NCBI GenBank assembly: GCA_038030265.1
Contig: CM075939.1
Span: 9,343,253 to 9,407,252, forward strand
DNA: 64,000 nt
Reading direction: 5' to 3'
Origin: Corythucha ciliata
Lineage: Eukaryota > Arthropoda > Insecta > Hemiptera > Tingidae
The notes beneath the pieces were generated by a model. That model did no database searches, was not told the origin of the DNA, and saw only the letters and a program-made list of their open reading frames with translations. Position numbers and translations under genes: made by a program. Shown here in pieces: positions 8,590 through 63,900 of this stretch (position 1 is the first letter of the stretch; the number at the start of each line of letters is the position of its first letter).

Positions 8590-9240
8590 AAATTGAGATA
8601 AATGGCTAACTCACGGCTAAAGTTATTGAGAAAAATTACTGAATCACGGACAGAAACTGTGAGAATAAGTGCTAAATCACTCATAAAATTAAGAAAAATA
8701 CATAGCTAATTCGCGAGGTAAAACGTTAGGTACATCACGTCTGAAATTGAGAAAAGGCTCTAAAATCGCGGATAAAGTGTAAAAAACAGTAATTTGCGTT
8801 TAAAATTACGAAACACGCTAATTCTCGGATGAAATAGTGAAAAATCGATAATTCACCAATAGTTTTGAGGAAAAAGGGCTAATTCGGGCCTAAAATTACG
8901 AAAACATGAATTCTCGGCTTATTCAGAACGCAGTTTCGTCGGTTCAATCTGAAAAAAACCCTAATTCATGGCTAGGAGTGAAAAAACGTTAGTGAGCGGG
9001 GAAAATTGAGGGGGGGGGGGAGCTAGAGTCTAGAAGTATGGAAACGACAATTTTCAGCTCCTGAAGGCAAGTTCATGGCTCAAACTGCGAAAAAACGCTA
9101 ACCCATAGCTAAAAACGAAAAAATCGCTAATTCGCAGCTAAAAGTAAGAAAAGTTGCTAATTCATGTATGAGATTGAGAAAAATCGTTAATTAGCAACTG
9201 AAATGAGGAAAAACTCGAATTCTCTGCAAAATTAAGATAA
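8590..9240 (+). repeat. Degenerate ~30-bp repeat array, family A, forward
   Basis: Many diverged units of the form GCTAATTCGCGGCTAAAATTGAGAAAAA follow one another at about 30-31 bases per unit. A variant unit with the sense CTCCTGAAGGCAAGTTCATGGCT appears near 9057. The same unit and the same kind of variant recur at 10080-10600, 21050-21840, 46780-47460 and 59860-60850, and inverted at 27960-28790 and 45520-46400. Confidence 0.75.
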
Positions 9241-9349
9241 ATCTTTTTTTTGACGTGAAACGTCTTTAAAACGGCTGTTTTTTTCGTTTTTTATAACAAC
9301 ACTCAAGGGTCGGGGTTGCCCCCCCCCCTCAGTCTATAGATCTAGTCCA

Positions 9350-9990
9350 GGATCCCCTTCCCTCTGACAAGGTTTAGGAGGTCCTCGGCTAGAGTTTCGC
9401 CGGTCGGAGCACCTTCGAGTGAATCGACCCCGAAGATTTTGAGCCGGCGGCCCGCGAGCGCCTCACACTCGAACACGATGTGATAGGCGGTCTCGTCTTC
9501 TTCTCCACACAGTCTACACACCGCGGGGACTCCGTGGTTACCCCGATGCGGTATAGGTGGTAACGGAGCTGGCAGAATCCTGTGATAAGGCCCACCACCG
9601 TCCTATTAAGGTCTCTCCGGACAAGTCGGAGCAGTTTGCTCGTAAGCCTCCTGCACGGTCTTTCGACCATGCGCTTACTCTGCTGGTGTCCCTCCAGTCT
9701 CTGCCAGCGTATAGCCGCCAGGGCACTAATCCACTTGGCTATCGCCATCCTGAAGGTCGATGCGAGACGCCGAGCGCCGGCTCCGGGTCAGTGAAGTCGC
9801 TACTCGAGCCCTTGTGTCCCGGTACGGAGGAGGGACAGCGTTCGCCGAGGATTCTGGGCATGATATCCGGCATCATGCCCAGCACTGGGTCCCGAACCGT
9901 GTCCAGGATCCCGGCGTGGATCCTCCTGGAATTAAGGTTCCCACCCCTCCATAAACCACCCCATTTATGCCTTAGTGCTGACATTGCCGC
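9350..9990 (-). mobile_element. 5'-truncated non-LTR retrotransposon (LINE) fragment, C-terminal pol
   Basis: On the minus strand this encodes the end of a LINE polyprotein. Around 9739-9850 it has a decayed RNase H-to-C-terminal linker (VPGHKG, then FTDPEPALGVSH). It continues through AIAKWISALAAIRWQRLEGH and LITGFCQLRYHLYRIGV to a CCHC-type zinc knuckle (CRLCGEEDETAYHIVFEC, about 9445-9520) and the terminal GETLAEDLLNLVRGKGILD followed by a stop near 9350. The zinc motif is in a different frame from the preceding part, so at least one frameshift has occurred: this is a dead copy. It is GC-richer than its surroundings and sits between two stretches of the same ~30-bp array, so it probably landed inside that array. 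Confidence 0.85.
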
Positions 9991-10079
9991 CGCCTCTTGA
10001 TGAAGAATCGGGAGGGAGTCCCGTCAGTACCTACATCGTGGCAGTAGGAGTGGAGTGCATATATAGCGGCTTCTGAAGG

Positions 10080-10600
10080 TAACTTCGTGGTTGAAAGTCA
10101 ACAAAATCGCTAATCCACGGCTAAATGGGGATAATGCGCTAATGCGGATAAAATTCAAAAAAGCGTTAATTCGCAGCAAAAATTGGAAAACAAAACTCTC
10201 ATTGATGGCTCGCTAGGAGGGTAAAATTAGGTGAAACGCTAGTTGACGGCTGAAATCAAGATAAATGGCTATTTATGGGGTTAAATTGAGAACTTTTGCT
10301 ATTTCACAGAAATAAATTGAGTAAATGTCAAGTCGCGGTTTCCGGAGACAACTTCGTGGCTAAAATTAGAAAATACAGCGCAAATTCACGGGTAAAATCG
10401 CTTACCAGCGGCTTAAATCAGGAAAAACAGACATTCATTGCAAGAAAAATCGCTAATTCACGGCTGAAATGGACGCAAATCGGTAATTCGCGGCTAAAAT
10501 GGAGGCAAATCGCTAATTCACCGATGAAATTGAGAAGAAGTGATAAAGTGTGGAAAAAAACGTTAATTCGTGACTTCTGGAGGCAATTTCACGGAGGCGT
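10080..10600 (+). repeat. Degenerate ~30-bp repeat array, family A, forward
   Basis: Continuation of the family A array on the other side of the LINE fragment. The clearest run is at about 10450-10540, where consecutive units such as GCTAATTCACGGCTGAAATG and GGTAATTCGCGGCTAAAATG keep a 30-base period. Variant units of the CTTCTGGAGGCAATTTC kind occur near 10070, 10350 and 10575. Confidence 0.75.
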
Positions 10601-10853
10601 TGGTGAAAGATTCGCCTGGGGTCGCCAAATGCCTAAGTCGGCACTACAAAATGAGCTGCCAACAGGCACATTTTTTGTGCAAATGGAAAACGCTATTTTA
10701 TACTGTAGTTAACTTATGTTGAAGTCATTGATCGAGCCCCCCCCCCCACAAGTTCCTTTTTTTTCAGAGCGTCACGGCCTTTTGCTTAGTTCAAAGTGTT
10801 GATTGTGCTCGATAGGGGGGGGGGATGGGTAGCCCGCGTGAGTTTTTACGACC

Positions 10854-10987
10854 AGGGGGCCTATTCTGAGTTGTCGGGATAAAATCCCGCAAGCGGGATC
10901 CAAGAACGCTGAATAAGAAATAACATTATCCCGTCATAGCAACCGCACTTGCGGCATTTCTTCCCGACAACTCAGAATAGGCCCCCA
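10854..10987. mobile_element. Short palindromic MITE (GGGGGCCTATTCTGAGTTGTCGGGA ends)
   Basis: Both ends match as inverted repeats for about 25 bases: AGGGGGCCTATTCTGAGTTG on the left and its complement at the right. An internal ATCCCGCAAGCGGGAT palindrome is also present. A diverged copy of the same element lies inverted at 41658-41793. Confidence 0.7.
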
Positions 10988-10999
10988 GGTTTATGTCCC

Positions 11000-11970
11000 A
11001 CGACCAAAAAAAGGTTGGTCGGCCCTGCACTAAGGTCTCGCAAAAGTCGGGTGGTGCCCTTCCGAGTTATTTGCCGAAGCTAATCTGTATTTGACCATAA
11101 GACGAAAGGAGGTGGTAGATGAAAACACAAATTTAACATTTCTGTTAGGGACAATAAATTACCTGAGAGCGGACGTGATACTAAAGACCCGCAATACATT
11201 GTTGTACAGCGGGCCGGCGACTCAGCGAGATACTTAAGCTTCGACCACAAACTCTCACTTTCAACCCAGGAATAGAAAGGCCAACATCCTTCCAACTCAC
11301 ACCTTTGCCAACTTACTGTCGGTGTAGCCTTCAGGAGGAATAAAACCTATCATTTTCCTGTCCTATAAAATGATAGTTTGGCCAACAAACTTGGACTTAG
11401 AACCCCGGGGAAATAGACTTCACTTGGTTATCGAGGTAATCAAGGCACCTCGGTCGAATTTGACCCGGGAGAGGGGTGGCGAAATTGTATCGTCTAGTAT
11501 TTTTGGCCTTCAGAAATTCACTAGGCCGCCGGCAGGCGGGGGTCTTCCCCTATTTTCAGCCCCACCTGGGCATCGTAAGTCCTTTAAATGTGACATAGTT
11601 TCTCTTGTGACTCGCCATTCCCTTGACGTATAGGGTAATGTATGGGGCGTGCGGGTAAAGGTTTACACTTTACAGTCGTTTGTTTTGAGGTAACTAAACA
11701 AATCTTTTTAGTAACTTAAAATACGATTTCTTAATGGTTCCTAAACAGTCATGACTATAAAATAAGTTGAATATAGAGAGACAGATCATAACACTGATAA
11801 TAAAACAGAGAATATAACAGTTTTCTGTGTCTGATACAAAAATAAACGCGAAGGCCGTTTGAAATAAAAGTTCTTTGAAAAAGGCGGCCATATAAAGCGT
11901 AGTTATGCCTTGTATGTACTTAATTAAGATCACAGATATGAAATCTACGACTCATTTGTCATTAACAATA
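11000..11970. other. Gene-poor spacer 3' of the RUFY gene
   Basis: No gene is recognised. The stretch 11160-11225 shares a diverged segment of about 45 bases with 38070-38120 (see findings). The part next to the RUFY stop codon (11640-11972) should contain its 3' untranslated region, but I see no canonical AATAAA on the minus strand close to the stop. Confidence 0.4.
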
Positions 11971-11972
11971 GT

Positions 11973-14900
11973 TTACCTCGTCACGGAATATTTTGCAAGC
12001 AAGGAGGTGTAACACTGATCGCACAGCCTAACCTGTTTCGTCGACGGTGGAATGGCCATATAATTATCCGAACAGGCGTTGCAGAAAATGTCGCCGCAGC
12101 TTCTACAATGGTGCTACAACACGGTTCAAAGGGCGAAATAAATCTCATTCCGTTCTGAGCTCCCCTCCCCTCCCATCCCTTCTTACTTTTCGTCGAGTGA
12201 GAACAAACTCTTTGGTACAAAACTTGCAGTTAGTCGCATCCTTGTCCGACGCCCAATTTCCTCCGACCATCGTCGCTTCAGGTGGATCCAGTGATCCGGT
12301 CATTTTTCCGTATTCTTCTTGCAATTCGGTCACCTGGAGTTTTGAGGCGCTCAAATGTTTGCCCAATTCTTCTAAAGTTTCTTCCTGTTCGCGACACTTC
12401 TCCTGTAACCGAAACTGGTCCTCTTGTAGAGTTACGTAATTCTGAAATTTACACACACACAAACAAAAGTTATTATAGAAATTTCGGAGACGGACGTTCA
12501 TAGAGAGTCAATTTCATACTTTTGCCACAGCCCTCAATTGATTGACTTCTGATTGAAGTCGATTAATGAAATCTTTGTCGGTTTGAATGGCCGCTTCCAG
12601 CGATAGTCGCATGTCTCGTTCCCCTTTCAACGCCTCCGATGTTTCAGTCGCTTTCGTTAGGGCTATTTCAGCCGCCGTTTTCTTGCGTTCGACTTCTTTT
12701 TGTCTTAGAAAACACACAAATCAATTATTGAGGGCTTCAGTTTCTGTAAAGTCAGAGGCAAAGGGCCCCCTACCCTACCCTCTGATCCGTCTTGTTGACA
12801 GATTTTTAGTGAAAAGCCAAGATTTTGGTTTAAATGTGTCAGAACTCTTGTTGGGGATTTGTAAAGTCGAGTAGTCATTAGGTAGGTCGGACTGGGCGAC
12901 AAAAATCTCGAATAGTAAGGCCACCGCGTTTTTTTTCCGGCAAGCATCGGAGTTATCAATCCATGGTTTTTCCTACAGAGCGTTTGACAATCCTGACAGA
13001 CAGTGTAGTGCGCGTTGGGCTGTGTTGCGTGAGAGCCAACGCTGTCACGCGTCACGTTCGGCGCTAAGGGATATTAGAGTCCCTTATATTAGCGTTTTCG
13101 ACGGATGTCATAGTCCAAGTAAAATATCGTAGTCCAATGTCGCAGTAATTGCAATAGTCGCAGGAGATTTTCTGCTTGTCCTTCCCCCCCCCCCCCCGAA
13201 CATTAGGGCGAAAGACACTAGAAGACAATTCATCCCAGGGCCCAGGGTGATTGTTCGAAGTTGATTACATTTTATTGGCTATTCCCATGCCAACTCTGCT
13301 CCGAACATGTTCCAAACCAAGGTGCCTCGGTTCCAAGAACCTTGCTGGAACAGACCTATTGACATTGCTATCAACCTAAGTTACCTCACAGACATTTTTC
13401 AACTGTTAACGAGGGACTTTTCTAAACATCAAGATGGTCGGGTGGGGGACTTCTCGACCGTGATAAAGCCGCCTTTACATGCAAGCTTTAAAAAGCTGAG
13501 CTGTGGGCTTCAACTCCACAAGAGCTCTCCGATTGGTTGAAGCCCTCAGCTCAGCTTTTTAAAGCTTGCGCGTGAAGGTAGGGTGACCAGAGGTAAAAGT
13601 GGTTTCCGAGGACGCCTGGTACGAAAAGTAGGACAATGTCAGGACGCTTTCGACGAAAAGTAGGACGCCTAAATACAAGAAGAACAATTAATCGTTGATC
13701 AGTTTAATGTTACGGGTCCGCCCAACCGACCAATTTAGCGTTCCAGGTTTTGAAAGAACGAAAACTACGAAACTGGGGGGTTTGAAAGAGCCAAAACTAT
13801 GAAAGTAATGGTTTTTGAATGAGCCAAATCCGCGAATTAGGTTTTGAGAGAGCGAAAGACCGCGAAACATGGGCCAAAATGACAAAATTTTGTGTTTGAT
13901 CGAGTCAAAACCATGAATTTGCTTTTTGTAAGAGCTACATTTGTTTTTTGAACCAGCGACATTTGCGAAGTTGATTTTAGAAAAAGCTAAGGAACAAAAT
14001 TACGGTTTGAAATAGCAAAAAATCGTGAAATTGGGCTTCGAAGAAGCAAAATCCGAGATATTGGTTGTGAGAGAGCGAAAATCCTCAGTAAAATTTGAGT
14101 TCAAACTGCCAAAATCATGAAATTTGTTTTTTCGAAGTTAGTTTTTCGCATTGGTCAAAGCCGTGCGACTGTGGACTCCAGAAAGAGCCGAACCCACGAT
14201 ATGTTGACACTGAAATAATCGAAATCTGTGAAATTGTGGTTTAAATTAGCCAAATTCACGGAATTAGGTCTTGAAAAGAAATAAATCAATTGAATTTATA
14301 GACCCAAATTGACGAAATTTAGGTTTGAAATAAGCCAAATTCGAGATTTTAGAGTTTTAAAATGCAAATTAATTTTCTGATCGGCCAAACCTGCGAAACT
14401 GATTTTCAGTGAGATCTAAAGCGGCCCATACACGTAGAATAATATTGCGCAAACATAGGGGTTGTACAATAAAATTGAACGTTTGTGGGTTGTATTGATG
14501 GGTTGCACAATATAATGAACAACCTATTTTTTTATCCCTAAACATCTGGGCCCTATTGCACAATGTTTTATTTTTTATTAGCTAATAATAGCTAATAAAA
14601 CAGCTGTAATATTAGCTAATAAAACATTGTGCAATAGGGCCCTGGAAACGAAATATTGTACAAATTTATTGCGCAATATTTATTGTACGTCTATCGATCC
14701 CTTAAAAACACGAAATTTTGTTATTAATATTATTAGTTTTTTAGCCATACAACTTGATTAATGTTATATGTTTAGGGTTTTGGCTTTTTTCTTCTTCTAC
14801 TTCGTCGTTTCCTGAGCTTTCGCCTTCTTGTGCTGAAGGCATCGTCAGAGAACTTTTTGGGTTTTTCTTTATTTATTTAACGAAATTTTGATTTTAAACG

Positions 14901-17900
14901 CCTGAAAATCAACAAAATTGGGTTCTAAATAACGAAAATCCGTAAAATTTTCGATTCGAAGGAGCCAAATTTGAAACAATGAACGTTAAAATAGTTGGTT
15001 ATGAAATATCGACAGAGAAATTTGCGAAATTGATTTTAGAAAAAGCTGAGGGCACAAAATTACGGTTTGAAATAGCAAAAATGCATGAAATTGGGATTTG
15101 AAGAAGCAAAATCCGAGATATTGGTTATTTTAGAGCGGAAATCCTCAGTCAAATTTAGGTTAAAGCTGCCGAAATCACTAAATTTGTTTTTTCGATGTTT
15201 GCTGGAACGAGCCAAATTCGATATTTTAGATTTTTAACGTGCAGATTCATTTTTTGATCGGCCAAACCTGCGTAACTGATTTCTAGTAAGATCTAAAACC
15301 ACGAAATTTTGTTTTTAAACGCTTGAACATCAGGGAAATAGGGTTCTAAATAACGAAAATCCGTAAAATTTTAGGATTTCAAGGAGCCAAATTTGAAACA
15401 CTGAAAAAATTGTGGATTGAAAAAGCCAAAATCACAATTCCGCCCCCCCCCCCATTTCGGTTGTTGAATTAACCGAACCCGCAAAACGTATTTAACGAGG
15501 AGTTAAAGCCACAAAATTTATTGGTTTTTCATCATGTGTGAAATTCACCCAAATCGGGGATTAAAGGAGCGAAGCCCACAAAATTGGGTTCTGAAACAGC
15601 GAAAGTTCATAAAATTGGTTGTTTAAAGAGCAATCTCCGCGTAATTTTGGATTTGAAAGCGAGGAAATCAACAAAATTGGTGTACGAAATAACTAAAATT
15701 CGTGAGGGTTTGTTTCTATGGTGCCAAATTTGAAACGTTTGTTCGTCGAAGCGTGAAAATCTCCAGATTTTTTTTTTTTTTTTTGCGAATTAATTAACCA
15801 AACCTGCTAAAATCCCCGAAATTGGGTTTTAAAGGCGCCAAGTCTACTAGATTGGGTTCTGAAAGAGTGAAAGTCCGTAAAATTGGTTTTTGAAAGAGCA
15901 AAACCCACGAAATTTGGTTTTTGAATGAGCAAAAGCCCGAAATTGGGATTTGATCGGGGCGAATCCACAAAATTTAGTTTTGAATGAGTGAAAATCCTCG
16001 AAATTGACGTTTGGAAGAGTCTAAATGACGAAATTTTGTTTTTTCAAATGCCAAACGCTCATGATTGGTTTTAATCAGAGTGTGAGTCAAATTTTCCGGT
16101 TCGTCGGTCCAATGTTCTCATGGATTGTGGGGTGAATATGCAGAGTTTTGAGGCATGCCGGTGTGTAGGAGAGTTTCAGCGGGTTAAATAACATAATTGT
16201 TCTCTGAGTGGACTTTGCGCTATGATATCCGTCCCTTGTGGGTAAAAATCAAGGGAGGAAATCCGGCTCACCAAACTGATGAGGGCCGCGCAAGAGCAAA
16301 ACGAGGACTGGGGACTTGGCGGCAGCTTTGTGTGACGATGTACTTGAAAGATGTTGTGAGTTAAAACTACCAGATGTTTCATCAAGTAGAGACCGAAAAT
16401 GAGGACTATTTTGACCTCTCTCTGGACAGCTGAAAAATGAGCCCGGACGTCCCCGGACGCTAAAAAAAGTAGGACATGTCCGTAAAGTAGGACGTCTGGT
16501 CACCCTACGTGAAGGCTCTAAAAATACAAAGAATAAAACGCTCTAATAATTAATTATAGTAAGTGTTATAATAACAAACAACACGAGTTCACAATGTACA
16601 GCAGACAAAAAATTAAAACGCCTAAAAACCCCGAATTTATCACCGCACATTTATTCTTTGGCTACCTGTGCTTCACTCTTTCTTAAAATTAAACTTTCAA
16701 CGACCATTTTAGAGCTAATAAGGTGGGTGGGTCCTACACACATACAACCACAAAATCGTGCGATTTTTAAAATTAATTATTGCACGCACCTCTATAAATT
16801 TTAAGCGCCTTGTCTTAACTATTTTAATTCTTTTCAGCCCCCAGTTAACGATTTAAACCATTTTTTTTTTACCCCCGATAAACACTACAAGCTTTGGAAA
16901 TAGCCAGCGAATGTTTAGTTTCCTCTACTTTTTTTTATTTGAGATCTTTCAGAAAGCTGATTGGCAAAGCTATATTTAAATGTTTTTTGTTTTTGTTTTT
17001 TTTTTACATTCTTTTAAACCTCACTCATTTTGGTTTCTAGGGGAAAAAAAATAAAGCGTTTGGGAAGAAGAGAGGGGTAAAGGAAAGATGGGGTTGGCGT
17101 CAATTGTAAGCCCCGAAAGAATAGATAAAAAGTGCGAGAATGTACATACTTGTCGCCCATGATTTGTAGCGTATCATTCATTGCGCAAGTTTTTGCCTCC
17201 AGTTTAGTCACTAGCTCCGTTTTTTGTTTAAGAGTAGACTGACAATCCTGTGCATTGACCAAAAAACAAAAAAAGATGTATGCATACACGTTCGTACTCC
17301 ACCATCATTTCATTAACACCCAGCTACAAATCATGTTTTCTTCTTTCAAAGAGTTCCTTCCATGAATGTCTTATTATTATTAGTGATATACTTTTTTAAA
17401 ATGCCAATCAAATTTTCACAACCTTGGGCATTAACCTTAGAAGGGGCTTAACATTGATTAAATTAAGTAAAAAAGCCAGGAATATTACAACGCAAGTGGC
17501 CAGTTCATTCAACGGGGTCGTTCTGCCCCTCCAAAATGCCCGAAGAATATCTTCTTAAACATACATTCCGCCCGTATAAAGTAAAAAGTCACATGCACAA
17601 GAAAAACATGAGAAAAACCAACGTCCACCTTGTTAAATAACTAAAAAAAGATACAAAGTTTTTAGTTGGCTAGCAGTTCTGGCTTCAACTTTGTAAGCGC
17701 AACAAACGATAAACGGAATCGTGCAATTAATTTAGCGCGTAGATTATGGTTTTGTTAATGCAGCAATTTAACATATAACATCACCGAGGGAGAGGTTTTT
17801 CTATTAAAAATGAATAAAACACTTTCCCTATCGTACTCTCAATCCCTCTCTCTCCCTCATCAAACTGGGGTTTTAGCTTTCTCTTTCTCTTGGCACTTGA

Positions 17901-20900
17901 CGAGACCGTCTAGAAGTTTTCCAATCTCCAACGTCTTGTTTTGCAGCCTCGTTACCATGACACCCTTCTCCGTCAGCTCAGTTTCACACTCCTTTTAACA
18001 GCCCAAAATAGGAAAAAAAAATAGGGAAAGCTAAAAAAAAAGGCCAAAGTATACGGCGGAGAGAGAAAAATTGTAGTGAAGGAGTGGGGGATGCCTTATA
18101 GGGTTGCCAACAAGTTCTCGTTACTTTTAGAAGAATCAAAAGTACCGAGTAGACGAGTGTGTGATTGTAGAGACTCGAATATACCTAAAATCTTTTCGGT
18201 CTAGTCTGGTATGTTTCGGTAGCCTAACGGGCTTCAAACCACTAATATAAGGTCGCCTGTAAATTGAAAACTTCCTTTTAGAGTTGAAGAGGCCCGTACA
18301 AACTCTCAGCAGCTGATATGGCGACCGCCTTAACTAAACACCTTAACCTGGGCCACCCCGACCCAAACAGCCAGAAGTTGGCACAAACCACACAGCCAAA
18401 GCAGTTGGCACAGGTCACACCAGCAATGAAAATTAGCGATAAATTGACTTTTACCGGTCCAGAAATTGATAATTTCACCCCTCCTACTGGCTATTTGGAA
18501 AGAATCTCCCTCTCCGTCCCATTTAATGAACATTTCCCCGTGGATTTGACTGTTCGGCCACGTGTTTACATCAGATTCGTTAGCATTTCAACCCACCGGC
18601 TCATTTTTCATGTGTCCGGGGAAAGGTCAAAAGTGTCCTCTTTTTTTGTCCTACTTTTTCGGCTCAACTACATGTGGTGGGCCTGTAAACTTCGAACATC
18701 TTTCACGTTCGTATTTAAACAAAGCTGTGGGGCTTAGCGCAAAACTGGCCCTGCCCGCGTTTCACCATCACGGTTCTTATCCATCACGCGTTCTCACGAA
18801 GCTCTTCCATAGCCGAATGTTTCAAATTTGGCACCAATTTCACTGATTTTGTAATTTCCTATCCCAATTTCGCGAATTTTCACACTTTTAAAAACCAAAA
18901 TTTGTGGGATTGCTCTTAAAAAATAAAATCAGTTTTGCAGGTGAATTAGCCAATTCGGAAAATTAATTCAACTCTTCCAAAAACCAAATTCCCGGATTGG
19001 GCTATATTATGCAAAGCCCAAATTTCGTAATTTTAGTCCTTAGAAATCCCAGGTTTTCGAAATTTACCGGGGCGATTTGCAAGACGCGATGAGGAAACTA
19101 ACGCAAGGGAAATTCTACCGTTGATCTTCCTCTCCCCCCTCTCCAAATCATGTAGCTTAGAATGGTAGGCAATGGAATAGAAAGGAAGTCACGTGTTTTT
19201 TCAGTGATTTGGAACCCGTGGGGTAAGGGTAGGTAACAGCCCGCAAGACACATTCAGGTGTTGCGTTTTGTTGCCTATCCCCTTCTCAATCACTTGAAGA
19301 AACAATTGCTGTCGGAAACCCGCACAACCTCATGATTCTGTTTTTGACTAGGAAACCAGAGAATTTATAGCGCCTCAATTGATGGGTTTCATGCTAAACT
19401 GTTGGCGCCCCCTGCCAATCCGAACATATCCAGCACTTTGAAACTGCATGTTGTTACACACAAAAAAGTGTGTGTGTGGTGGGAGGGGAACTACTCTATG
19501 AAACAGGTTGATTGTGTCGTCAATCGAGACCCATCACTCAACACGAGTGGTGGAGCCGCCAACAATGTCGCAGAATATTCGCTTTTCCATAACCAAATGC
19601 CGTGAATTTGGCTTCTTCTAACAGAATTTATGCCATTGCAGCCACAATTTCGGGTATTTTCCCTCTTTCAAAAATAAAATAACGAGGCTTTAGCTCTTTC
19701 TAAAATCGGTTTCGCAGCTTTGAGTAATTCGAAAGCTAATTTACCTTTTTCAAAAGTCAAATTTATGGATTTGGGTAACTCAAAAAGCAAATTTTTGTTA
19801 TTTTGGCTATTACAAAGGCCAGTAAGGCTAAGTTTACACTGTCCACTTTTGCCCTTCCGTTGCGTTGCCCTACCTTCCGTTTTTTCGAGCAAACGCAACG
19901 CAACGGAAGGGCAAAAGTGGACGGTGTAAACTTACCCTTACACGATTTCCAAACGGAAAACCTCCGCATTCGTCTCTTTCAAATCCCAATGTCAGGCAAT
20001 TTTGCTCTTTTAAACCCGAATTCCGCGGGATATGCTCTTTCAAAAGCAAAATTTCGTGGGTTTGGCTCTTTCAGACCCAAATTTATTGGATTTGACTCCT
20101 TCAAATTAAAACTTTGGTACTACCAATCAGTGGCGGCGGAAGTGGAGTTCAGGGAGAGCGAATGCTCCCCCAATGGTCTGGTTTGAGGGAGCGGTGCTCC
20201 TCCTGAATCGAAAAAAATAATGGGTTCACTTTAAATTCGCTTCTCTAAAAATTATCAATCCAAAACTTAATTATAAGAGCGGATACAAGTTACTCTTTTT
20301 TTCTGGCAGACTTCCCTTCGCACATGGGTGGTGTGAGAGTTACTGCGAAGGGATCAATAGTGTGAAATTTTATTTTTGATGCAGCGAAACCCGCCAAATT
20401 GCGCTTTATCGGGTGAGCGACACGGTAAATTGGTTTGGTTTTTAATGAGCCAACGCCTGGGAGTGGGACAAACCTACGAAATTGTTTTTTCGGACAAACC
20501 CCGCAAAATTGCGCGTTATGGGGAGTCAATAATGCGAAATTTGTTTTTTTTTCCCCATGTTCAAAAACTGCGAAGTTTTTGTGAATGCCAAGTCTATAAA
20601 ACTTCAGTTTTGAAAGGGTCGTGGACTCGAAATTGGCTTATGGACGTAGTCCTGCAAAATTGGCTTTTTGGGTAAGCGGAACCAGTGAAATTGGATTGTG
20701 TTATACCAACATCAGTAAAATTTGGGTTTTGGTAAGACTAACCCCACGAAAATTATTTTTTTAAGTGCAAAATCGGAGTTTGGGTTTAAATAAGTACTAG
20801 TAAATAGTGAAAAAGCATTTCGGGGACTCTAGTGTACCGATAAAGGGGCGAGGGGGACAGATAGTGCCTCCGAGCGCCCTTCGGATCTCGGATGGAGCCC

Positions 20901-33436: not shown

Positions 33437-33889
33437 TTCAGTACAAAATAGCCGGATTTTTTCTGTAAAAGTCACTGTAATGTTGGATTTGCCCAGAAAA
33501 ATCCCTATTTTGTTCAGAAAGGGTTAAACTGGTTATTTAGCCGTCAGGGCAGGGCTTCCGGATCGGGCTGTTAGGCTGTTACTAGTGGAAAACACTTTGT
33601 CAGTGGCGTGCCCATGGGGTGAGTTTTGAGGGTCAGAACCCCTCCCAGAGTACTTCAGCTCTGCGTAGTTGAAAAATTACAAAAAACTCTAAAAAATATA
33701 AATAAAATAAATAACTATAAAAAATTATAAGAACACAAACAAAATAAACGAGGAAACCCTGATTAAAAGTTTGCCATTCAGCCCCGCTAAGTAACTATCC
33801 ACTGCATCAATGATATTCATGCCACTGACCAGGCTTGACAAATTGCGTGCTTGGATCTACTAAAAATGGCTTGAGAGCCATTCGCTGCT

Positions 33890-34660: not shown

Positions 34661-34905
34661 CTGGAGTTTGCGCACTGAACATGGGCCGACCCTATCTTGC
34701 CAAGTCCCCTCCCAGCGTTGGTGGCGGAAAATTAGCTGGATAAATGCTAATACACAACAATAAGCAGGGAAACAACACCAATTGGCCATATAGATCCGCA
34801 ATTATTTTTCTCAAGTGAAATAACTTCCTTCAACTTAAAATAAGTCACTCCCCAATAAATTTAGGTAATTTAGATGAATTTATTGAGTTAAAACATTATT
34901 TTAAT

Positions 34906-38420: not shown

Positions 38421-38559
38421 ATTTCTAAATAATTGACATTATTTGCACGTTTAATAATTTTATTATTGGAATGAATACGCGCGTGAACCTGACCTGATGA
38501 ATCAAGTGAGAATAATTAATAAAAATTCGTCCTACTTGTTTTTCCGTACATTAGGTTAA

Positions 38560-39310: not shown

Positions 39311-39326
39311 TTGTCGTTGGTTTCAG

Positions 39327-52090: not shown

Positions 52091-52399
52091 AATAATCAAA
52101 AACACCTCCAAAATTTCTTCGTGCTGCGGTGGTTTAAAACGGTGGCAGTAAGAATTCTTTAAGATTCGTCTCAATAATGATAAGGTTAGAGCATTATAGT
52201 GGGTAGAGCTTTCTGTGGTTGGACCGTTTTTGTAGTTGGAGCCAGAGAGGGGCAGGGGTGGGCAGTTGCCATCCCCTAGACTTAAACCACAGTCTTTGAA
52301 GGGGCAGCTGGCCACTTCTAGATACCATCAATAAGTTAAAATCCATCAGCAACGCCACATTTGTATCGCCAAAAATGTTCTCATGTCCAACCAGAGAAA

Positions 52400-54110
52400 C
52401 CAATTTCCCTGATTTCGCCCTCTAAAATACCAATTTCGCGTTTCTTTTGTGCTGAAGTCCCAATTTCGCGGTGTCGTCTAATTCAAAAGGCACTTTTTGT
52501 GGTTTTCGCACACTAAAAACCCATTTTTGCAGCTCTGCCTCACTAAAAAAAAAAATCTCAGATTCCGATCGCTAAGACACCAATTTTCCTGATTTTTCTT
52601 GCCTAGCTAAGCTTCCTGGTTCTGGCTAGCTGAAAAACTAATTTATCTAATTTCGCTCTCCAAAACACCAATTTTGCGGAATTTTGTTGCTATCAAACAA
52701 ATTTAACGATGCCCCTTAAAAACCAATTCATCGGAGTTCATCCCCTAAAAGACCAATTTTTCTCATTTTTCTTACCTGAACAGACAAAAAACATTTTCCC
52801 GGACCCCCAGTGCTCACTGTAAAATAAATGTCTCGGATTTTGCTCACTGAACAATCACAATTTCAGAGATTCTTGTTCCCAGTAAACTAAAATTTGTTTG
52901 GTTGAGTCAATTCGGATTGGTCTCTGAATTGGGCGATCCAGTAAAATTGGTTTGCTGGAAACGAAAATCCCAGAAATTGGTTTTTTAGTGAGAAAAATCC
53001 GATCAATTTATGCTCGAAATTCACCTTCAGGGCAAAATTAATGACAAACTCCTCTCACCAAGGGCAACTTTACGGTGAAATTGTCCATTTCAAGAAAAAA
53101 AAAAACTTGTGAGGTTTACAAGTCAGATTCTGGGGTTAAAATTCAAGTTTCCCGACTACTACCTTACTTTTTGGCCAAAAATATAATGAAATCATGTTAT
53201 GGTCGTTGAGGGGGCTGTGTACCTTAATAGATACATCCAAAGAAAATCGCGATCCACATTATTCTTAAAAATACGAATTGTAATGGCAATCAACCCCAGC
53301 GACGCTGACTCCCGGGCTGAATTCCCAAATTTGGGTGTAAAAAGCCATTTTGGCGGATTTTGCACCGATAAACATTCAAATCTTTTCGCTGGGTCCAACC
53401 ATTCAAAGATGAAATTTCGCTTGCGCTTGGACTCTCTCAAAACAAACATTTCGCGGGGCTGTTTGAAAATACAATTTCGCGAGTATAGGTCTTCAAGAAC
53501 AAAATTTTGTGGGGTTTCTCTCCTGAAAAACCACATATCGCGGATTTGGGCATTTGGCTCTGCCAAAAACCAACTTCGAGTGATTCCCCCCAATCATAAA
53601 TAAATCAACAAATAAATAAAATATAAATTTAAAAAATCAATTTCACGGGTTTGGCTCTCGGAAAAACCAAATTTCACGGCTTTTTCTCTCAGAAAAACTG
53701 GCACATGAAAGCTTTGGAATTGTGGTGATATGACGAGAGGCGGCCGAAACGGCCCTCAGATTATTATTATTTATTTATTTTGTAAGTTTTCCAGCCCCCA
53801 AAAGCACAGCTTGTGGCGAGAGCTGGAGTTGACCATCGATTGCCGTATTTCTCGCTAAAATTTATTTTGCGCGGATCACTGAAAAATTAATTTGGCGGGA
53901 TTGGCACTACAAAAACAGATTTCATGCATTTTGACCTCAAATACTATTACCGCGCAATTGGCGGGTTTGTTTTTGGAAGACCTTGATTTTCTGCGGCTTC
54001 AAAACCAATTTCGTGGGGTTGCCTTATTCAACAACCAATTTTGCGGATTTCTCACCAAATAAACCATTTCCGCAGGTCTGACTGACTGAAAAACCAATTA
54101 TGCGGGTTAC
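52400..54110 (-). repeat. Degenerate ~30-bp repeat array, family B, reverse
   Basis: Units such as CCCTAAAACACCAATTTTGCG and TTTGGCTCTCGGAAAAACCAA recur throughout with about 30-base spacing. A short GC-rich patch with an (ATT)n run interrupts it around 53740-53780. The open frames at 53192-53603 on both strands are by-products of the repeat. Confidence 0.65.
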
Positions 54111-54368
54111 GCTTCTCCCAAGTTTATAGTAGTCAGCGTATAGGGATAAAATTACCAGTTTTACGCAAAAATCACTATTTTTAGTACTACTTACTAAAAC
54201 TCGCCATTTTCGTGCTAACATCGCCATTCTTGTGCAAAAATCGTCACTTGTTTGCTAAAATAGACAGCTTCGATCTAAAACTTTTGTTTCGAGGTAAAAC
54301 CACTGTAAGTTTATTTTTAAATCGCCAATTTAGTCGTGAAAACTTCTGTTTTCTGGTAGCAGTTTTAG

Positions 54369-54460
54369 GGCCTCCGTACACGGGGCCACTTTGAAGCGTC
54401 ACTGGTCGGCAGTAGCGCCACTCGGATGACGCTTCGAAGTGGCCCCGTTTATACGGAGGC
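54369..54460. mobile_element. Hairpin MITE (GCCTCCGTACACGGGGCCACTT arms)
   Basis: GCCTCCGTACACGGGGCCAC and CTTTGAAGCGTCA at the left are matched in inverse at the right by TGACGCTTCGAAGTGGCCCC and GTTTATACGGAGGC. It lies inside family E repeats. Confidence 0.75.
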
Positions 54461-54819
54461 AAATTTCAATTTCGGATTTAAAAACATCCAGTTTTGTGGT
54501 AAAACCATCAGGGTAGGGGGAGGTAAACGTTTCATTTTGAGAGAAGCCTGTCTTTAGTTCACGGGTAAAAATCACCAATATTGTCTTGTAATTTTCCGTT
54601 TTGATGTGTAACACGTCAGGATTAGCGTGATACGTTTAGTTTCGGAGGATTCCATCTCGAAAAGTGACGATTTTTGTCAAATACCTAATAGTGATTTCAC
54701 GCCAAAGCTGACAAGTTAGTCAAAACTGAAGATTTTACTGCAATAATGGTGATTTTACCCTTAAAATTTTGAAATTTTTTCTTCAAAATGAAAATTTTAC
54801 CCCAAAACTGGTGGTTTTA

Positions 54820-55265
54820 CAGACGGTTTACATGGACCGTGCGGGGAAAAGGGTCCTGTTCGGCTGCGCAAAGCGCAATTATCTTTCTAGGTACATTTAC
54901 TCTAAGGTTCACACGAAGCGGTCTCCATGGCGGACGGATTCATAACCTTCCTACTGAAAGCCTCTGTGATCTGAAACCTCTCACATATTGTTGATGGTGT
55001 TTTTCTTTTCTTCCAAAATTAAAATTTTGGGTGCGTTATTATTGTGTTGTGCTCGGGTGTTGAAATGATTGATGGAATGAACATCGTTTACATAAGTAGT
55101 TCCTATCAACATTCCTCTCCGCTCTGCGCTTGCGCGTAGGTCGACGGAACGCGGAGGCGGTATGTCTGTCCCTTCCGACAACATGGCGGCCACCCTGTCC
55201 CAACCGTCAATCAGATTGCGTTCCGTCCTTCCGCTTTCCTCGCGCGGTCCGCTCCATGTGAATCC
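54820..55265. mobile_element. Probable MITE with imperfect inverted ends
   Basis: TTTACATGGACCGTGCGGGGAAAAG near 54828 and CTTTCCTCGCGCGGTCCGCT plus CCATGTGAA near 55230-55260 are imperfect inverted repeats. The interior is GC-richer than the surrounding family E units, which resume at once on both sides. Confidence 0.5.
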
Positions 55266-55984
55266 AGCTTTAGAGTAAAATATCCAATTTTCCGGTTAAG
55301 AGAAGTCAGTTTTGTAGTAAAATATCTAGTTTCGGAGTAAAATATTCATTTATGAGATGCCACCGCCAAACTTTTTGGTGTAAACACGTCAGCTTTTGCA
55401 GTGAAATTGTCCGTTTTGGTGAAATATCGTATTATTTGGGAACAAATCGACAGTATTGTGGTAAAATCGTCAGTTTTGGCGTACAATCCTATCCGTTTTG
55501 GGGAAAACGCCAGTTTTGGTGTGAAATTGTCACTTTTGAAGTAAAATGCCCAGTTTTGAGGGTAAATTCATCATTTCGGTGGTAAAATATTCAGTTTTGA
55601 AGTGGAACCTTCACAATCTCCTAAGCTTTCTTATGGTGCCTTCATATTTTATGCTACTACTGACGTTTCTGTAAAAATGTTGCAAGAAATAACTAAAACT
55701 ATGTTGTTCTCTGAAAAAAGGATAACTCCCTTGATCAGGAAGGGTGTGGGATGATTTTCAGGGGGGAGAGCTTATACTATTATTCATTATTGATCCTTTT
55801 TAACACAAAAACTGTGCTCAAAATTCGACCTGACTGAAAAACTAGGCGAAAGAGTCCTAACGAAAAACGTGAAAAATAAATTAACGAGCCGATATGGGTG
55901 AGTGGAGGGGGGTGGCCCTTGTTTCTGTGAGGTAGGACTCTTTTTGGCCGAGTTGCAGTGTCATAGCGTTTTTTTTTGTTGTTT

Positions 55985-58960: not shown

Positions 58961-59859
58961 TGGGCGCTGAAGGCAAATGCTCCAAGCCAGACGCTCATAA
59001 TCGTTTCAGATTAATATAAAACCTATTGAATGAGACCAGTTCTTCGGAAGAACTTATTCATTCGCGTCACGCAGAAGCGTAGTAAGGGTGAGGGGGCGGA
59101 CCGCCCCGGGCCCCCGAAAAGCTTAAATACGGAAAAATGAGGATTATTACGTTCTTTATTCATGGATGTAGGTATTTGAAAAGGTTGGACAGCGATTTGG
59201 CTACTTTCTACGAATTCCAGTCCATACCCGACCTGGAGAATATAACGTTACAAGTGATGTCAGCAGAGTGTGGGCTGAATATTCGATTGAGCCTTCGTGA
59301 GTGCTTTTCTGGTGGCTGAAATATAGAAAATTCCTGCCTTGTTGAGGAAAATTCGTGGCTAAAATAGAGAAAATACACCGTCTACAGTTTCGTTAGGTCC
59401 TTAAAAGAGCCTCAATAATGGATTAACTGAAAATACTTGCCCTGAGAATGTCCCAACTGGTGATTCGTGCTCTCCAAAACGAGCAAAATCGACCATTCGC
59501 CCGCCAAAAATGACCAAGATGACAGTTCTCGCCTTGGCTTGAAGTATTATATTCACGCCGTCTTCCATTCAAACCATAAAATCGGCTAAATTGACTATTA
59601 TGTGCTCTGAAAAAGAGCAAAACTGACAATTTGCGTCTTGAAAATAACTAAACAGACGATTCCTGCCCTGAAAATGGCCATTCGCATCACCTATGAAATT
59701 GCTAAATCGGCAATTCCAGCTCGAAAAATGGTAAAACTGTTTGTTAGGACCCTATATTTCTATCAAATCGGACATTCATGCAAGTTCCCCACTTAACAAA
59801 TTGAATTGCGAAATATGGAATATTCGCGTATAAAAAAGGGAATAGATGCTAATTCACTG

Positions 59860-60850
59860 AAAAATCAGCAGAAAGCGCTATTTTCAAGATTAAATTAAGA
59901 AAAATCGCTAATTCGCGGATAAAGATGAGGAAAATCACTAATTCGCGGCTGAAATTGAGAAGACGCAAATCCGTAGTTTCTGAAAGATTCGAGGGTCAAA
60001 CTGAAAAACAGCGCTAATAAATAGCAGAAAGTAGGAAGAAACTGCTTTTGCGGGGCTAAAATCTAAACACTACACGGCTAAAATTTTAAAAAATCCTTAA
60101 TCAGCGCGGCTAAAATTAAGAAAAACACTAATTTTCTGCCTTCTGAGGCAACTAGCTGTGACACGGCACACTTGGCTTCGTGTTGGCGCTCCCGGCGATG
60201 TGCGTTCAACAAACCGCGCACCGACCCAAACGCCCGCGTAGCACGGGTGTGAAGTGCACAGTTAGATCTAGGTATGGCGTAGGAGCCCAAAGGGAGGCTT
60301 AGGCGCCTGCCGGGATCAAAGCCCGGCGCCCCCAACAGAGGAAAAAAAAAATAATAATAATAATTTGCAGATAGAATTGTGAAGAAGCGCAAATTTGCGA
60401 CTACAATTGAGGAAAATTTCCAATTCACGTCTAGAATTGAGAAAAATTCCAATTTGCGTTAAAAATGGAAAATTATACAATTTGCGGCTTCCGCAGGCAA
60501 CTTTTGATGTAAAAATTGGGCAAAACCGCCATTTATGGGTAAGGGGGAAAACCCCGCTTCGCGGCTAAAACTGAGAAGCATCGCTAATCCATAGCGTATG
60601 GGAAACAATAAATGCTCATTTGTGGCAAAAATTTAGAAAAACTCGCTATTTTACGGCTAATATTGAGAAAAACGCTAATTTTTTGCTCAAACTGAGTAAA
60701 GTACTAATTCCCTGATCCCACCGCTTAAGCAAAATAGAAAAAATATCAATATGGACCTAAAATTGAGAAAAACGCCAACTCGAGGGAATTTAAGCAACAT
60801 ACCTAATTCACTGAATAAAAACGCTACTTTGCTGGTGAAATTGGGACAAT
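59860..60850 (+). repeat. Degenerate ~30-bp repeat array, family A, forward
   Basis: GCTAATTCGCGGCTGAAATTGAGAA-type units are interrupted by a GC-rich insertion at about 60150-60365. Variant units of the GGCTTCCGCAGGCAACTTTTG kind occur near 60135 and 60485. Confidence 0.7.
60150..60365 (+). mobile_element. SINE-like or LINE 3'-end insertion with A-rich (AAT)n tail
   Basis: A sharply GC-richer block within the AT-rich array ends GAGGAAAAAAAAAATAATAATAATAA. A 3' tail of this kind is typical of a retroposed SINE or truncated LINE on the plus strand. On the minus strand GCTTTGATCCC resembles a B box, but its position does not fit the tail orientation, so the class is undecided. Confidence 0.5.
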
Positions 60851-61069
60851 TCTGCGGATCCTCGAAATCGGGACAATCCCCGGGAAAATCCGGGTCGTTT
60901 GATCGTGTCTGGCACCTGCGCAGGACGTTTTTAATGGTCTAGGTCTCTAGGAGATGACACTTCTGAGGTCGCTAGACATTTTCTTTGGGACAGGGGCTCA
61001 CAACAGAGCTAGGATGTTGACAAACCCACCTTTTATTGGGCACATAGATTCATTGTTTACATTTTTAGA

Positions 61070-61510
61070 CGTGATGAGCCAGTTTGATTATCAGTACGTC
61101 CATTTTCAGGGCATGAATAGTAAATTTTACCATTTTTTCGACGAAAAAATCATTCGTAATACAAGAATGGCCCGTCAAGCCATTAGGGCATGAATTGCCG
61201 GTTGGGTTGTTTTTTAGGTCGCAAAATGTAAGTTTAGCCATTTTCAAGGCGTGAATGTGGTCAGTTTGGCCATATTTCGAACGCCAGTGGTCAGTTTTTT
61301 GGCATTTTGAGGGCTCGAATCGTCAGTTGTAAACATTTTCTACTGCAAATGGCTAGTTTGGCCATTTTTGGAGTTCGCATAGTCGGTTTTGCCATTTTCA
61401 GGGCAAGTATCGCTACGTTGAGCAATTTCAAGGCTCGAACTGTCAGTTTAGTTATTTTTGTACCACTTTATACTCATTTTTGCCATTTTTAGGGCCTGAT
61501 TAAAAATTTA
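61070..61510 (-). repeat. Degenerate ~30-bp repeat array, family C, reverse
   Basis: Units such as CAGTTTGGCCATTTTTGGAG and ATAGTCGGTTTTGCCATTTTCAGGGC are the reverse complement of the family C unit at 33890-34660. Confidence 0.7.
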
Positions 61511-61939
61511 GCTGTACCGAACTATAGCGCGATACCAGGTGTGTGTGCCTTCTTTTCGCCCTGATTTGATGCCCTGGAGGGCACATTGCCAGGATAGACC
61601 GGTCAGGACTTCAGGGAAGTGACCTGGCAGCGAGCGGAAAATAATGCCGGAACCAAGGACAACGCAAAACGATCAGTTTTGGTCACTTTGAGCCTTGGCC
61701 GCTTGAGCCTTGACCGCCAGCAGTTCTCAATTCAGCATGGTCGGAGGGATTCTAAACCAGCATACAGCTCAAATGGAAGAATTTTGAAGAATGGTCCAAA
61801 ACGCTCGTTTTTAGCCGGCGGTGACAGTTTGATGAAAGAAATTATTGAAAATCAGTTAAAGATATGGAGGGGGGGGGCGAAAAGGTGCTTTTCGCCTGTT
61901 GGCCCACCTCGCCCCCATAACTCTACGCCTCTGAAAGTA

Positions 61940-63250
61940 AACGGCCCTTGCGGTCGTCATTTCATGTTACATTTCTATACAAGGACCAATCATATTTCAT
62001 TACCGCATTTAACATAATAAGGTCAGTCAAAAACTCGTTGACGTTGTTGTCATTAGTGCTCGCTGTTGAACGAAAACTGTTTTTTGACGAGCCCACCCAC
62101 AGTAGTACAATTTAGTACAACCGCCCCGGAAAACTTGAATAGTGTATAGGCTTTTTCACTGTGAAATCCACGAATTTCACGTGCAAACGTGACGTAGTAA
62201 TACGTAAAACTTGAGTGTTGAATGCCACTGCTCGCGAACAGCCAGCCGCTGGCGGTTCGGGAACAGCCTGACAAATTCTGTTCTAAAAACAGCGTTTTTG
62301 TCCTCTGAAATCTCGACCGCTATAATAATAACCCACTGGGCTAGTTATCTGTTTAGTTGAATGAAGTCAGAAATTCGCGACCTTGATGGGCCATGATCCA
62401 CAAAGGGGCTGATTTAGCTGAAAGCATCGATGTACCAGTAGTTTCATTTTTTTTTTTCAACGGATTTTTTCCTCTCTGTCCCTTTTGCTCAAAATGAGGA
62501 GGGTTCAAGGGATTTTCAAACACCGATAATATACGTGACGAGGAAAAAGGAGGGTTGGCAGAGCAGAACGGTTCAAGCTTTGAATGCAAAATTAATGCAC
62601 CACCGGTTGCTTGTTGTCGATGGGGAGGGGGGTTGTAAAGGGGTCAGGCTCGCTATAATGGTAAAGAGAGAGAGGAGAGGATAAAAAGAGTGAAGGGGGA
62701 GGGGTGTGTACATATACTTGTTGAACAGGGGGGGGGGGTAAGAAACTAGAAATTAGTGGGTTGTGAGGGGGTGCGGGGATAGGGTGCAGGTAAAACTGCA
62801 GTGTTATGCAATTTCTCTATTATTCCATTTAACCGGTAAATCTACGGCCACTCCACTCTTCCTGTTCTAACTGATTTTCTGCACTTTTCAATAATAAATT
62901 GATTGGACGAATTATTTTTAAAGTTCGTCCAAACCAGATATCCAGACCTTCCACACCACGCGAAGGGTCGAAGATATGAAAAAAAAATATATAAAAAAGT
63001 TACCAAAAAAGTGGTTTATGCAAAAAGAGTATCACAGGAGCCAGGGAAAGGTTGGAAAGGGTCGTCATGAATATGACGACCTTGACCCAGGGTCATTTGC
63101 CATTGTTCGCCCCTTTTTATAAAATGATGAATTCGTTTTTCGCGTATTTGTTGTTCCCATTTTAACGAACGCCTAGCGGGGAGATGATCTATCGGTTCGA
63201 TCCAAGAGCAGGTATAGCTACCCCCACGTCCCCTCGTTCATATTCCGCCT
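61940..63250. other. Gene-poor region with GA/G-rich tracts
   Basis: No gene is recognised. About 62620-62780 is GA- and G-rich (a G run near 62728-62737). Short open frames here have no motifs. Confidence 0.4.
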
Positions 63251-63259
63251 ATATTTATT

Positions 63260-63900
63260 CGAATTAACTGAACCTGCGAAAACTAATTTTAGAAATAGCA
63301 AAAGCCGCGAAATTTGATTTTATTTAAATTGGGTTCTAAAGTACCCAAGTCCCCGAAATTGGGTTTTATAGGAGCCCAGTCCACAAAATTGTGTCAAGAA
63401 AGAGTGAAACTCACGAAAATTGGTTTTTGAAAGAGCAGAACTCGCAAAATTTGGTTTTTAAAAGCGTCAAAATCCACGAAATTGTGATAGGAAATTACAA
63501 AAATTAATGAAATTTGGTTTTCAAGGTGCCAAATTTGAAACATTTGGCTATGGAAGAGAGAAAAGGGGGGTTGAAAAAGCCGAAATTACAAAATTTGTAT
63601 TTTCGTCTTTTGTTTTTCCCAAGATTATTTTGTCGTACTAACCGAACCCGTGAAACTGATTTTATAAAGAGCTAACAGAAATTCGCTTTTATAGGAGCCC
63701 GGTCCACAGAACTGGTTTTTGAAAGAGAAAAACCAACGAAATTGGGGGTTTTGAAATAGAAAACCCCACAAAGTTTGGGATTTAAGCGAGACGAATCCGC
63801 AAAATTTTGTTTTGAAAGAACAAAATTCGGCTAAGTAGGTTTGGCAGAGTTAAAATGACGAAATTTGGTTTTGTTAAGTTCCAAACGCGCGTGATTGTCC
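63260..63900 (+). repeat. Degenerate ~30-bp repeat array, family B, forward
   Basis: TTTTTGAAAGAGCAGAACTCGCAAAATTTGG and related units recur with about 30-base spacing up to the right edge. Word order and variants (ACCGAACCCG, GTGCCAAATTTGAAAC) closely parallel those in the hAT-borne array at 15160-16080, suggesting another copy of that element running off the window. Confidence 0.7.

What the first reader, a model, noticed from the sequence alone, without database searches (positions are those of the whole stretch)
8590..63900. A network of modular ~30-bp degenerate repeats covers a large share of the window
At least six unrelated-looking unit families (A to F) form long, strongly diverged arrays in both orientations. 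Most share a unit length near 30 bases. Examples are GCTAATTCGCGGCTAAAATTGAGAAAAA (A), TTGAAAGAGCAAAATCCACGAAATTGGGTT (B) and CTGACTATTCGCGCCCTAAAAATGGCTAAA (C). Units of different families have similar grammar: an A/T-rich linker, a CG-containing core and a short G-rich word. A common period across different sequences is odd for ordinary minisatellites. It could reflect a shared generating mechanism, or selection on spacing (about three helical turns) for protein binding.
Basis: partly seen in the sequence, partly recalled or inferred. Interest (0 to 1): 0.75.

Follow-up and report, generated by a model that had tools for sequence, protein, structure and literature searches.

The report
Jumping genes filled with decayed repeats
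Many of the 30-base repeat arrays in this stretch are the insides of several kinds of cut-and-paste jumping genes that carried ready-made, already decayed arrays around a 400-million-base genome; no clear sign was found that the 30-base spacing itself is being preserved.

Summary
The window lies in a 401-Mb genome. Degenerate arrays cover 29% of it and 17.6% (SE about 4.7%) of twenty 10-kb stretches from the seven largest contigs used. Unit lengths are 30-31 (A, B, C, G), 20 (D) and 16 (E); G is B read on the other strand. A, B and C arrays fill non-autonomous DNA transposons of hAT type: short inverted tips with 8-bp target duplications in five elements (one duplication 7 of 8), and A-element target octamers 9 of 9 nnnTAnnn. 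Searches with end sequence alone gave loci with the array directly inside and correctly oriented in 20 of 20 (two are the window itself). Two C copies are 99.3% identical, yet their 74 units are only 60% alike, neighbours no more than distant ones. So these arrays decayed first and were then copied as blocks. Selection on spacing is not supported for A, B and C: indels per mismatch match those in array-free ends. D, E and G membership is inferred. A transposase-binding role is not excluded. No autonomous partner was identified.

The parts
13579..16507 (+). Complete B element: tips TAGGGTGACCAGA, 8-bp target duplication CGTGAAGG on both sides (13571-13578, 16508-16515)
13746..16080 (+). B array (about 30-31 bp unit AAATTGGGTTTTGAAAGAGCAAAATCCACG)
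8490..10559 (+). A array (30 bp unit AAATTGAGAAAAATCGCTAATTCGCGGCTA), interrupted at about 9240-10070 by unrelated sequence (limits read by eye)
10560..11027 (+). 3' end of the A element (tip ...CGGCCCTG), next octamer CACTAAGG; holds a small nested insertion at about 10851-10990; the 5' end was not found in the window
18598..20787 (-). Degraded B-type element(s): B right-end sequence (18598-18832), G+ 18833-19067, B- 19563-20116, G- 20362-20787
21029..21819 (+). A array
27929..28762 (-). A array
33601..34689 (+). C element: exact tip CAGTGGCGTGCCCATGGGG at 33601, C array 33809-34689 (unit CTAAAAATGGCTAAACTGACTATTCGCGCC); right tip and second target octamer not found
34906..35400 (+). hAT-like tip CAGGGGCGCAGCCAG at 34906 and D array 35014-35400 (20 bp unit); membership inferred, right end not found
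38554..39326 (+). E array (16 bp unit GGTTAGAGCTTTTTGT); element ends not established
45509..46446 (-). A array; AX-type end near 46508-46728
46766..47506 (+). A array
52253..54121 (+). Tip CAGGGGTGGGCAGTTGCC at 52253 (also beside a G array in L020) and G array 52384-54121 (G is B read on the other strand); right end not found
54130..55613 (-). D array
59092..60878 (+). AX-type 5' end (shared with L026 and L014) and A array 59350-60878
61087..61515 (-). C array
63258..63897 (+). B array

Best explanation
The A, B and C arrays are the internal bodies of non-autonomous cut-and-paste DNA transposons of hAT type. Each founder element acquired a tandem array of a roughly 30-bp unit (inferred). The units then decayed independently in a transposing lineage (inferred from the star-like pattern). 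Elements with already degenerate arrays were copied as blocks to hundreds of sites by a hAT transposase acting on the short tips (block copying shown; the transposase is inferred). Later whole-unit gains and losses and ordinary mutation degraded older copies. The common period reflects a few abundant families, some of them related, and not a conserved spacing.
For: 8-bp target duplications flank the families' own tips in B (window 13579-16507, CGTGAAGG; L008, ACCTAAGA, there one base outside the tip on each side) and C (TTCCCGTA at L052/L050; ATATAGAC at L053/L051); A in L025 has tips CAGGGGTGGCCAGCC/CAGGGCCGACCAACC (11 of 15 alike) and 7 of 8 matching flank bases. 9 of 9 distinct A octamers have TA in the centre. 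Loci found by end sequence alone have the array directly inside in the right orientation: 12 of 12 A and 8 of 8 B, one of each being the window. Copies share array order: single pairs reach 0.87-0.89 at one particular shift against means of 0.50-0.59 at shifts of four or more units. 32 of 47 copies of one C unit variant have a perfect tip upstream, 30 of them 1,658-1,710 bp away. C copies L050 and L051 are 99.3% identical over 2,456 bp while unit pairs within L050 average 0.60. Within-array identity is close to between-array identity. hAT dimerisation domains: 655 candidates, 150 scored, all 150 matched.
Against: No autonomous element with these tips was found; none of the 93 C tips compared lay within 7.9 kb of the 150 listed hAT domains, and A and B tips were not compared. 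Only five elements show both ends with target duplications, one of them 7 of 8 and one shifted by a base. The blind scan for duplications is not significant alone: 2 hits at 8 bp against 0-1 in five shuffles, and 5 at 7 bp against 3-6; its weight rests on both 8-bp hits having the family's own tips without mismatch. D, E and G have at most a tip on one side. A arrays also occur with a second end type (AX), a sharing not worked out. Columns of one base class differ in conservation far beyond sampling error, which plain neutral decay from one identical founder unit does not predict.
Confidence: 0.85

Rival explanations
1. The arrays are working cis-parts: many weak transposase-binding sites, kept by selection for mobility, so units hover around a consensus at equilibrium.
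For: Different families sit at similar conservation (mean consensus frequency 0.66-0.72 for A, B, C, G, E; 0.59 for D). Recently moved C elements still carry 74 recognisable units. Columns differ in conservation within base classes. G and D arrays have fewer gap events per mismatch (0.22, 0.19) than the ends (0.26-0.29). Precedents: tandem transposase-binding sites in Galileo inverted repeats (PMC3688188, abstract and sections 2.6 and 3) and subterminal repeats bound in Hermes (PMC10368747, passages).
Against: In A, B and C arrays gap events per mismatch (0.24-0.30) match those in the array-free ends. CpG columns show C>T and G>A excess and are the most eroded class in A and C. In Hermes, mutating the inner putative sites left about 70% of activity, although about 220 bp of each end was needed (PMC10368747, passages).
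Confidence: 0.15
2. Ordinary minisatellites that grew by slippage at many separate sites, unconnected with transposons.
For: Tandem organisation; copies of one element differ by whole blocks (L049 lacks about 365 bp present in L050, my arithmetic); neighbours are 0.02-0.05 more alike than distant units in A, B, G and D.
Against: Units within an array are about as different as units of other arrays. Unit order is shared between dispersed copies. Ends and orientation are fixed.
Confidence: 0.04
3. All ~30-bp families descend from one ancestral array that diverged while passing between hAT lineages.
For: B and G are the same unit (z 8.0); C-D z 4.0, B-H z 3.7, A-C z 3.1 in circular consensus comparison.
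Against: A-B (z 1.3 and 0.8) and B-C (z 0.7 and 1.8) are near chance; 56 comparisons were made with 60 shuffles each, so values near 3 are weak.
Confidence: 0.2
4. The carriers are foldback elements or Helitrons, not hAT elements.
For: Pairs of A arrays in opposite orientation occur (window 45509-47506; L014 1067-6487), as in foldback elements; 2 of the 20 end loci (L037, L038) also have a wrong-way array signal inside; tandem repeats are known inside Helentrons (PMC9659126, passages).
Against: 8-bp target duplications with short tips starting CAG or TAG; one array orientation at 18 of 20 end loci.
Confidence: 0.04

Closest known systems
Non-autonomous hAT elements (hAT MITEs) such as Mar of Drosophila, Buster group
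   Same: 8-bp target duplications; nnnTAnnn target consensus as in the A element (PMC3517528, passages); short tips
   Different: The word 'tandem' does not occur in the main text of the Mar paper; here the interior is tens of units (about 15 to 80 in the five elements with both ends, estimated from array lengths)
Galileo / Foldback-type transposons with tandem repeats in long inverted ends
   Same: Tandem repeats within a DNA transposon; in Galileo some repeats bind the transposase (PMC3688188)
   Different: Galileo is of the P superfamily with 7-bp target duplications (the 7 bp recalled); here tips are short, duplications 8 bp, and one array fills the body, mostly in one orientation
Hermes, Tol2 and other hAT elements with subterminal repeats
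   Same: hAT ends with repeated short motifs that the transposase binds or that lie in required end regions (PMC10368747, passages)
   Different: The Hermes motif is 4 bp and concentrated near the tips; here units are 16-31 bp in arrays of hundreds to thousands of bases
Helentron/CgHINE elements with central tandem repeats, and MITE-borne satellites
   Same: Transposons spread tandem arrays through the genome (PMC9659126, passages)
   Different: Other superfamily; the MITE model described there expects homogenisation, whereas these arrays show almost none

Membership tests
hAT superfamily, B element | 8-bp target site duplication next to matching terminal inverted repeats | tested here: met
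   2 elements: window CGTGAAGG directly at the tips; L008 ACCTAAGA one base outside the tips on each side
hAT superfamily, C element | 8-bp target site duplication next to matching terminal inverted repeats | tested here: met
   2 of 2 copies with both ends fetched: TTCCCGTA and ATATAGAC, 14-bp inverted tip CAGTGGCGTGCCCA; the third copy, L049, lacks the right tip
hAT superfamily, A element | 8-bp target site duplication next to matching terminal inverted repeats | tested here: met
   1 complete copy, L025: 7 of 8 bases match, tips 11 of 15 alike; the window copy lacks the left end
Buster group of hAT, A element | nnnTAnnn target consensus | tested here: met
   9 of 9 distinct octamers beside recognisable 3' tips
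Buster group of hAT, A element | Mobilised by a Buster-type transposase | not tested
   no autonomous copy identified
hAT superfamily, D, E, G arrays | Both tips and 8-bp duplication | tested here: inconclusive
   tips on one side for D and G, none confirmed for E; right ends not found in the window
Autonomous hAT transposon | Encodes hAT transposase with dimerisation domain | tested here: inconclusive
   domain abundant in the genome but not within 7.9 kb of the 93 C tips compared; A and B tips were not compared
Classical minisatellite / satellite | Homogenisation: units of one array more alike than units of different arrays | tested here: not met
   A 0.562 at separation 1, 0.533 beyond 20, 0.569 between arrays; C 0.609, 0.606, 0.601; B, G and D show only a small neighbour excess
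Protein-binding array with selected spacing | Indels depressed relative to substitutions | tested here: inconclusive
   not met for A, B, C (0.24-0.30 against 0.26-0.29 in ends); G 0.22 and D 0.19 are lower; the two kinds of alignment differ

The most novel reading that the evidence does not exclude
Several hAT lineages in this genome independently (or by exchange) evolved bodies made of tens of degenerate units at two or three helical turns that act together as weak, redundant docking sites for transposase multimers, so that unit identity matters statistically rather than individually; this would be a transposon type defined by a self-maintained degenerate array that never undergoes concerted evolution.
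Probability: 0.12. Interest if true: 0.75.

Novelty: new variant of a known kind. Interest (0 to 1): 0.45.

Why it matters
If the twenty sampled stretches are representative, roughly 70 Mb of a 401-Mb genome consists of such arrays (17.6% of the sample). The C elements show that a degenerate tandem array can be a heritable, mobile cargo: the decay predates the spread. Dating arrays by unit divergence would then be wrong, and repeat annotation that treats them as decayed satellites would miss the transposons. The near absence of within-array homogenisation, even in elements that moved recently, runs against the expectation of concerted evolution in tandem repeats. The set also offers a natural test of whether many weak binding sites help a hAT element move.

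Tried and rejected
Free minisatellites grown in place: rejected for A, B and C by shared unit order and fixed ends. Selection on a 30-bp spacing: not supported in A, B and C. CG-containing core as a conserved motif: CpG columns have the lowest mean conservation in A and C, and rank with or slightly above the other G/C columns in B and G. One universal 30-bp period: rejected. Foldback or Helitron carriers: rejected for B and C by target duplications. Coding repeats: frames over the arrays are at most 147 aa and unit lengths vary by single bases, so no frame is kept. Right ends of the window's C, D and G elements sought by target octamer or tip: none found. Literature searches for hAT elements with internal tandem arrays (open-access PMC papers only; of the listings only the papers named in this report were opened) gave no description of this type; (a springtail guess for the host) led nowhere and the species was not identified.

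Limits: the circular aligner can bridge gaps between neighbouring arrays (for example L036, L045, L047), so some segment limits are approximate; one search rechecked the 20 end loci with 300-bp pieces. The profiles were trained on part of the same loci. D and E scores near 35-41 are within the range of shuffled maxima. In one search the families were run separately, so an array can count in two families.
Full report
What is there. The window is C3:9343253-9407252 of a 401-Mb assembly of 57 contigs, seven of which, 31-72 Mb long, were sampled. Periodicity near 30 is far above chance. With circular profiles for six unit families (A, B, C, D, E, G), arrays cover 18,601 of 64,000 window bases and 17.6% of twenty 10-kb stretches taken at round coordinates (L009-L028; 15 of 20 hold at least one array at score 35 or more; L009 contains 500 N; standard error about 4.7% by my arithmetic). 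Mean consensus frequency per column is 0.59-0.72. The phenomenon is thus genome-wide, and the window is somewhat richer than the sample.

Families. Modal unit lengths: A 30, B 31 and 30, C 30, G 30, D 20, E 16. 201 of 933 A units are exactly 30 by this alignment. Consensus comparison (56 family-by-strand pairs, 60 shuffles each) shows B and G to be one unit on opposite strands (z 8.0); C-D (4.0), B-H (3.7 and, on the other strand, 3.1) and A-C (3.1) come next, the rest are below 3. In the 200-kb sample 9,327 of 14,639 bp of relaxed tandem repeats have periods 28-33, but outside the mapped arrays only 396 of 1,369 bp do. A common period is therefore a property of a few abundant families.

They lie in transposons. 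Masking the arrays and comparing what remains showed recurring flanks beside them. For B, the window holds a complete element, 13579-16507, with inverted tips TAGGGTGACCAGA and the octamer CGTGAAGG on both sides; L008 holds a second with ACCTAAGA, one base outside the tips on each side. The blind scan that found them (8-bp duplication, inverted tips with up to 2 mismatches, around all arrays of the first map) gave these 2 hits, against 0-1 in five shuffles; at 7 bp it gave 5 against 3-6, none with a family tip, and at 9 bp none. So the scan alone proves little; what counts is that both 8-bp hits have the family's own tips without mismatch. For A, L025 holds 5968-8520 with tips CAGGGGTGGCCAGCC and CAGGGCCGACCAACC (11 of 15 alike) and octamers CTATACGA/CTATAAGA; nine distinct octamers beside recognisable A 3' tips all have TA in the centre, the pattern published for Buster-group hAT elements (PMC3517528, passages read). 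For C, three copies sharing one unit variant were fetched: L050 and L051 are 99.3% identical over 2,456 bp and lie between CAGTGGCGTGCCCA tips with perfect octamers TTCCCGTA and ATATAGAC; L049 lacks the right tip. The exact C tip also stands at window 33601, before the C array.

Independent of arrays, two end sequences were used as queries (window 10577-10720 for A, 13578-13676 for B). They had 831 and 637 first-look candidates, of which 40 each were scored and matched. Of the 12 and 8 loci fetched, all 20 have the expected array within 300 bp inside in the expected orientation (scores 93-198; shuffled maximum 33.5 of 200 scores); one of each set is the window itself. In 2 of 20 (L037, L038) a wrong-way signal is also above that maximum, and outside the ends 6 of 20 are, as expected where arrays are so common. 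Tips within the stated mismatches number 469 (A 3' tip), 311 (B) and 426 (C) genome-wide, reversed controls 0.

Arrays were copied as blocks after they had decayed. Anchored at the element end, arrays of 14 A copies agree best in register (mean 0.681 for the first 150 bp, falling to about 0.56 four or more units off); 12 B copies behave alike (0.665 against 0.58). Single pairs reach 0.87-0.89 at one particular shift, not always shift 0, which fits gain and loss of whole units; the mean advantage of shift 0 is gone beyond about 750 bp. One C unit variant, listed at 47 places on contigs C1 and C2, has a perfect tip upstream in the right direction in 32, 30 of them 1,658-1,710 bp away; both lists were cut at 100 places and the tips were perfect matches only. 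In L050, 74 units average 0.603 pairwise identity with no trend with separation; same units of L050 and L051 agree at 0.987 on average, minimum 0.458. Over the arrays of score 100 or more, identity at separation 1, beyond 20 units, and between arrays is 0.562, 0.533, 0.569 (A), 0.609, 0.606, 0.601 (C), 0.611, 0.604, 0.628 (E); B, G and D, like A, show a small excess for neighbours (for example B 0.551 against 0.512 at 5-6 units; D 0.504 against 0.457 at 11-20).

Is the spacing selected? Gap events per mismatch: arrays A 0.295, B 0.237, C 0.297, G 0.218, D 0.185, L050 alone 0.300; array-free ends 0.264, 0.255, 0.291. The two estimates come from different kinds of alignment (unit against consensus, copy against copy), so only a large difference would count, and none is seen in A, B and C; G and D are lower and remain open. 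CpG columns average 0.63 (A), 0.59 (B), 0.66 (C), 0.64 (G), against 0.72, 0.56, 0.73, 0.59 for other G/C columns and 0.72-0.77 for A/T columns: in A and C they are the most eroded class, in B and G they are like other G/C columns. Columns within a class differ significantly in most classes, which leaves room for founder variation or weak constraint.

Mechanism, shown and inferred. Shown: arrays A, B and C lie inside elements with hAT-type tips and target duplications; order of units is inherited between copies; decay precedes at least the latest spread of C. Inferred: mobilisation by hAT transposases of the genome (655 candidates for the dimerisation domain, 150 scored and matched), the founding expansion of each array, and membership of D, E and G. 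The 93 C tips compared were not near the listed transposase domains (nearest 8.0 kb), so the autonomous partners remain to be found.

Against what is known. Galileo carries transposase-binding tandem repeats in long inverted ends (PMC3688188; abstract, sections 2.6 and 3 read); Hermes and other hAT elements have short subterminal repeats (PMC10368747; passages); MITEs and Helentrons are known to spread tandem repeats, in a model that expects homogenisation (PMC9659126; passages). The present elements combine hAT ends with a body made of a long, hardly homogenised array. I found no description of that combination, which cover open-access papers only.

Noticed in passing
window 42278-45088: A 148-bp tandem repeat (about 42266-42939) has further copies at 43084-43254 and, inverted to the first, at 44876-45088; the middle (43256-44872) resembles L017 7429-8887. 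It looks like another inverted-repeat element.
   Followed up: no
window 48123-49832, 24339-25497, 3816-4771: Three pairs of inverted repeats of 224-278 bp at 89-94% identity, possibly other transposons.
   Followed up: no
window 9240-10070: Insertion inside an A array with a 147-aa open frame (9557-10000) and no Pfam match.
   Followed up: partly
window 10851-10990 and 41684-41799: Small element containing GGGGGCCTATTCTGAGTTGTCGGGAT, with related sequence in L002 and L021, nested in the A element end.
   Followed up: no
window 31451-32227 and 40346-40771: Exon-like frames with GHMP kinase N-terminal and histidine phosphatase (branch 2) domains; by eye, a FYVE-like zinc finger on the minus strand near 12000-12300 (not tested).
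   Followed up: partly
L013 5325-8273: A different 30-bp unit (AACGGTTACCATAGCAACGGTTGCCATGGT) interleaved with A arrays.
   Followed up: no
L025 5968 and 6962; L017 4119 and 9800: The A element's left end occurs twice 994 bp apart in L025, and the sequences around two G arrays 5.7 kb apart in L017 are 99.9% identical over 760 bp: recent duplications or assembly doubling.
   Followed up: no
L014 577-6941: Mirror order of arrays G+ A- A+ G- suggests two elements head to head or a foldback-like compound.
   Followed up: partly
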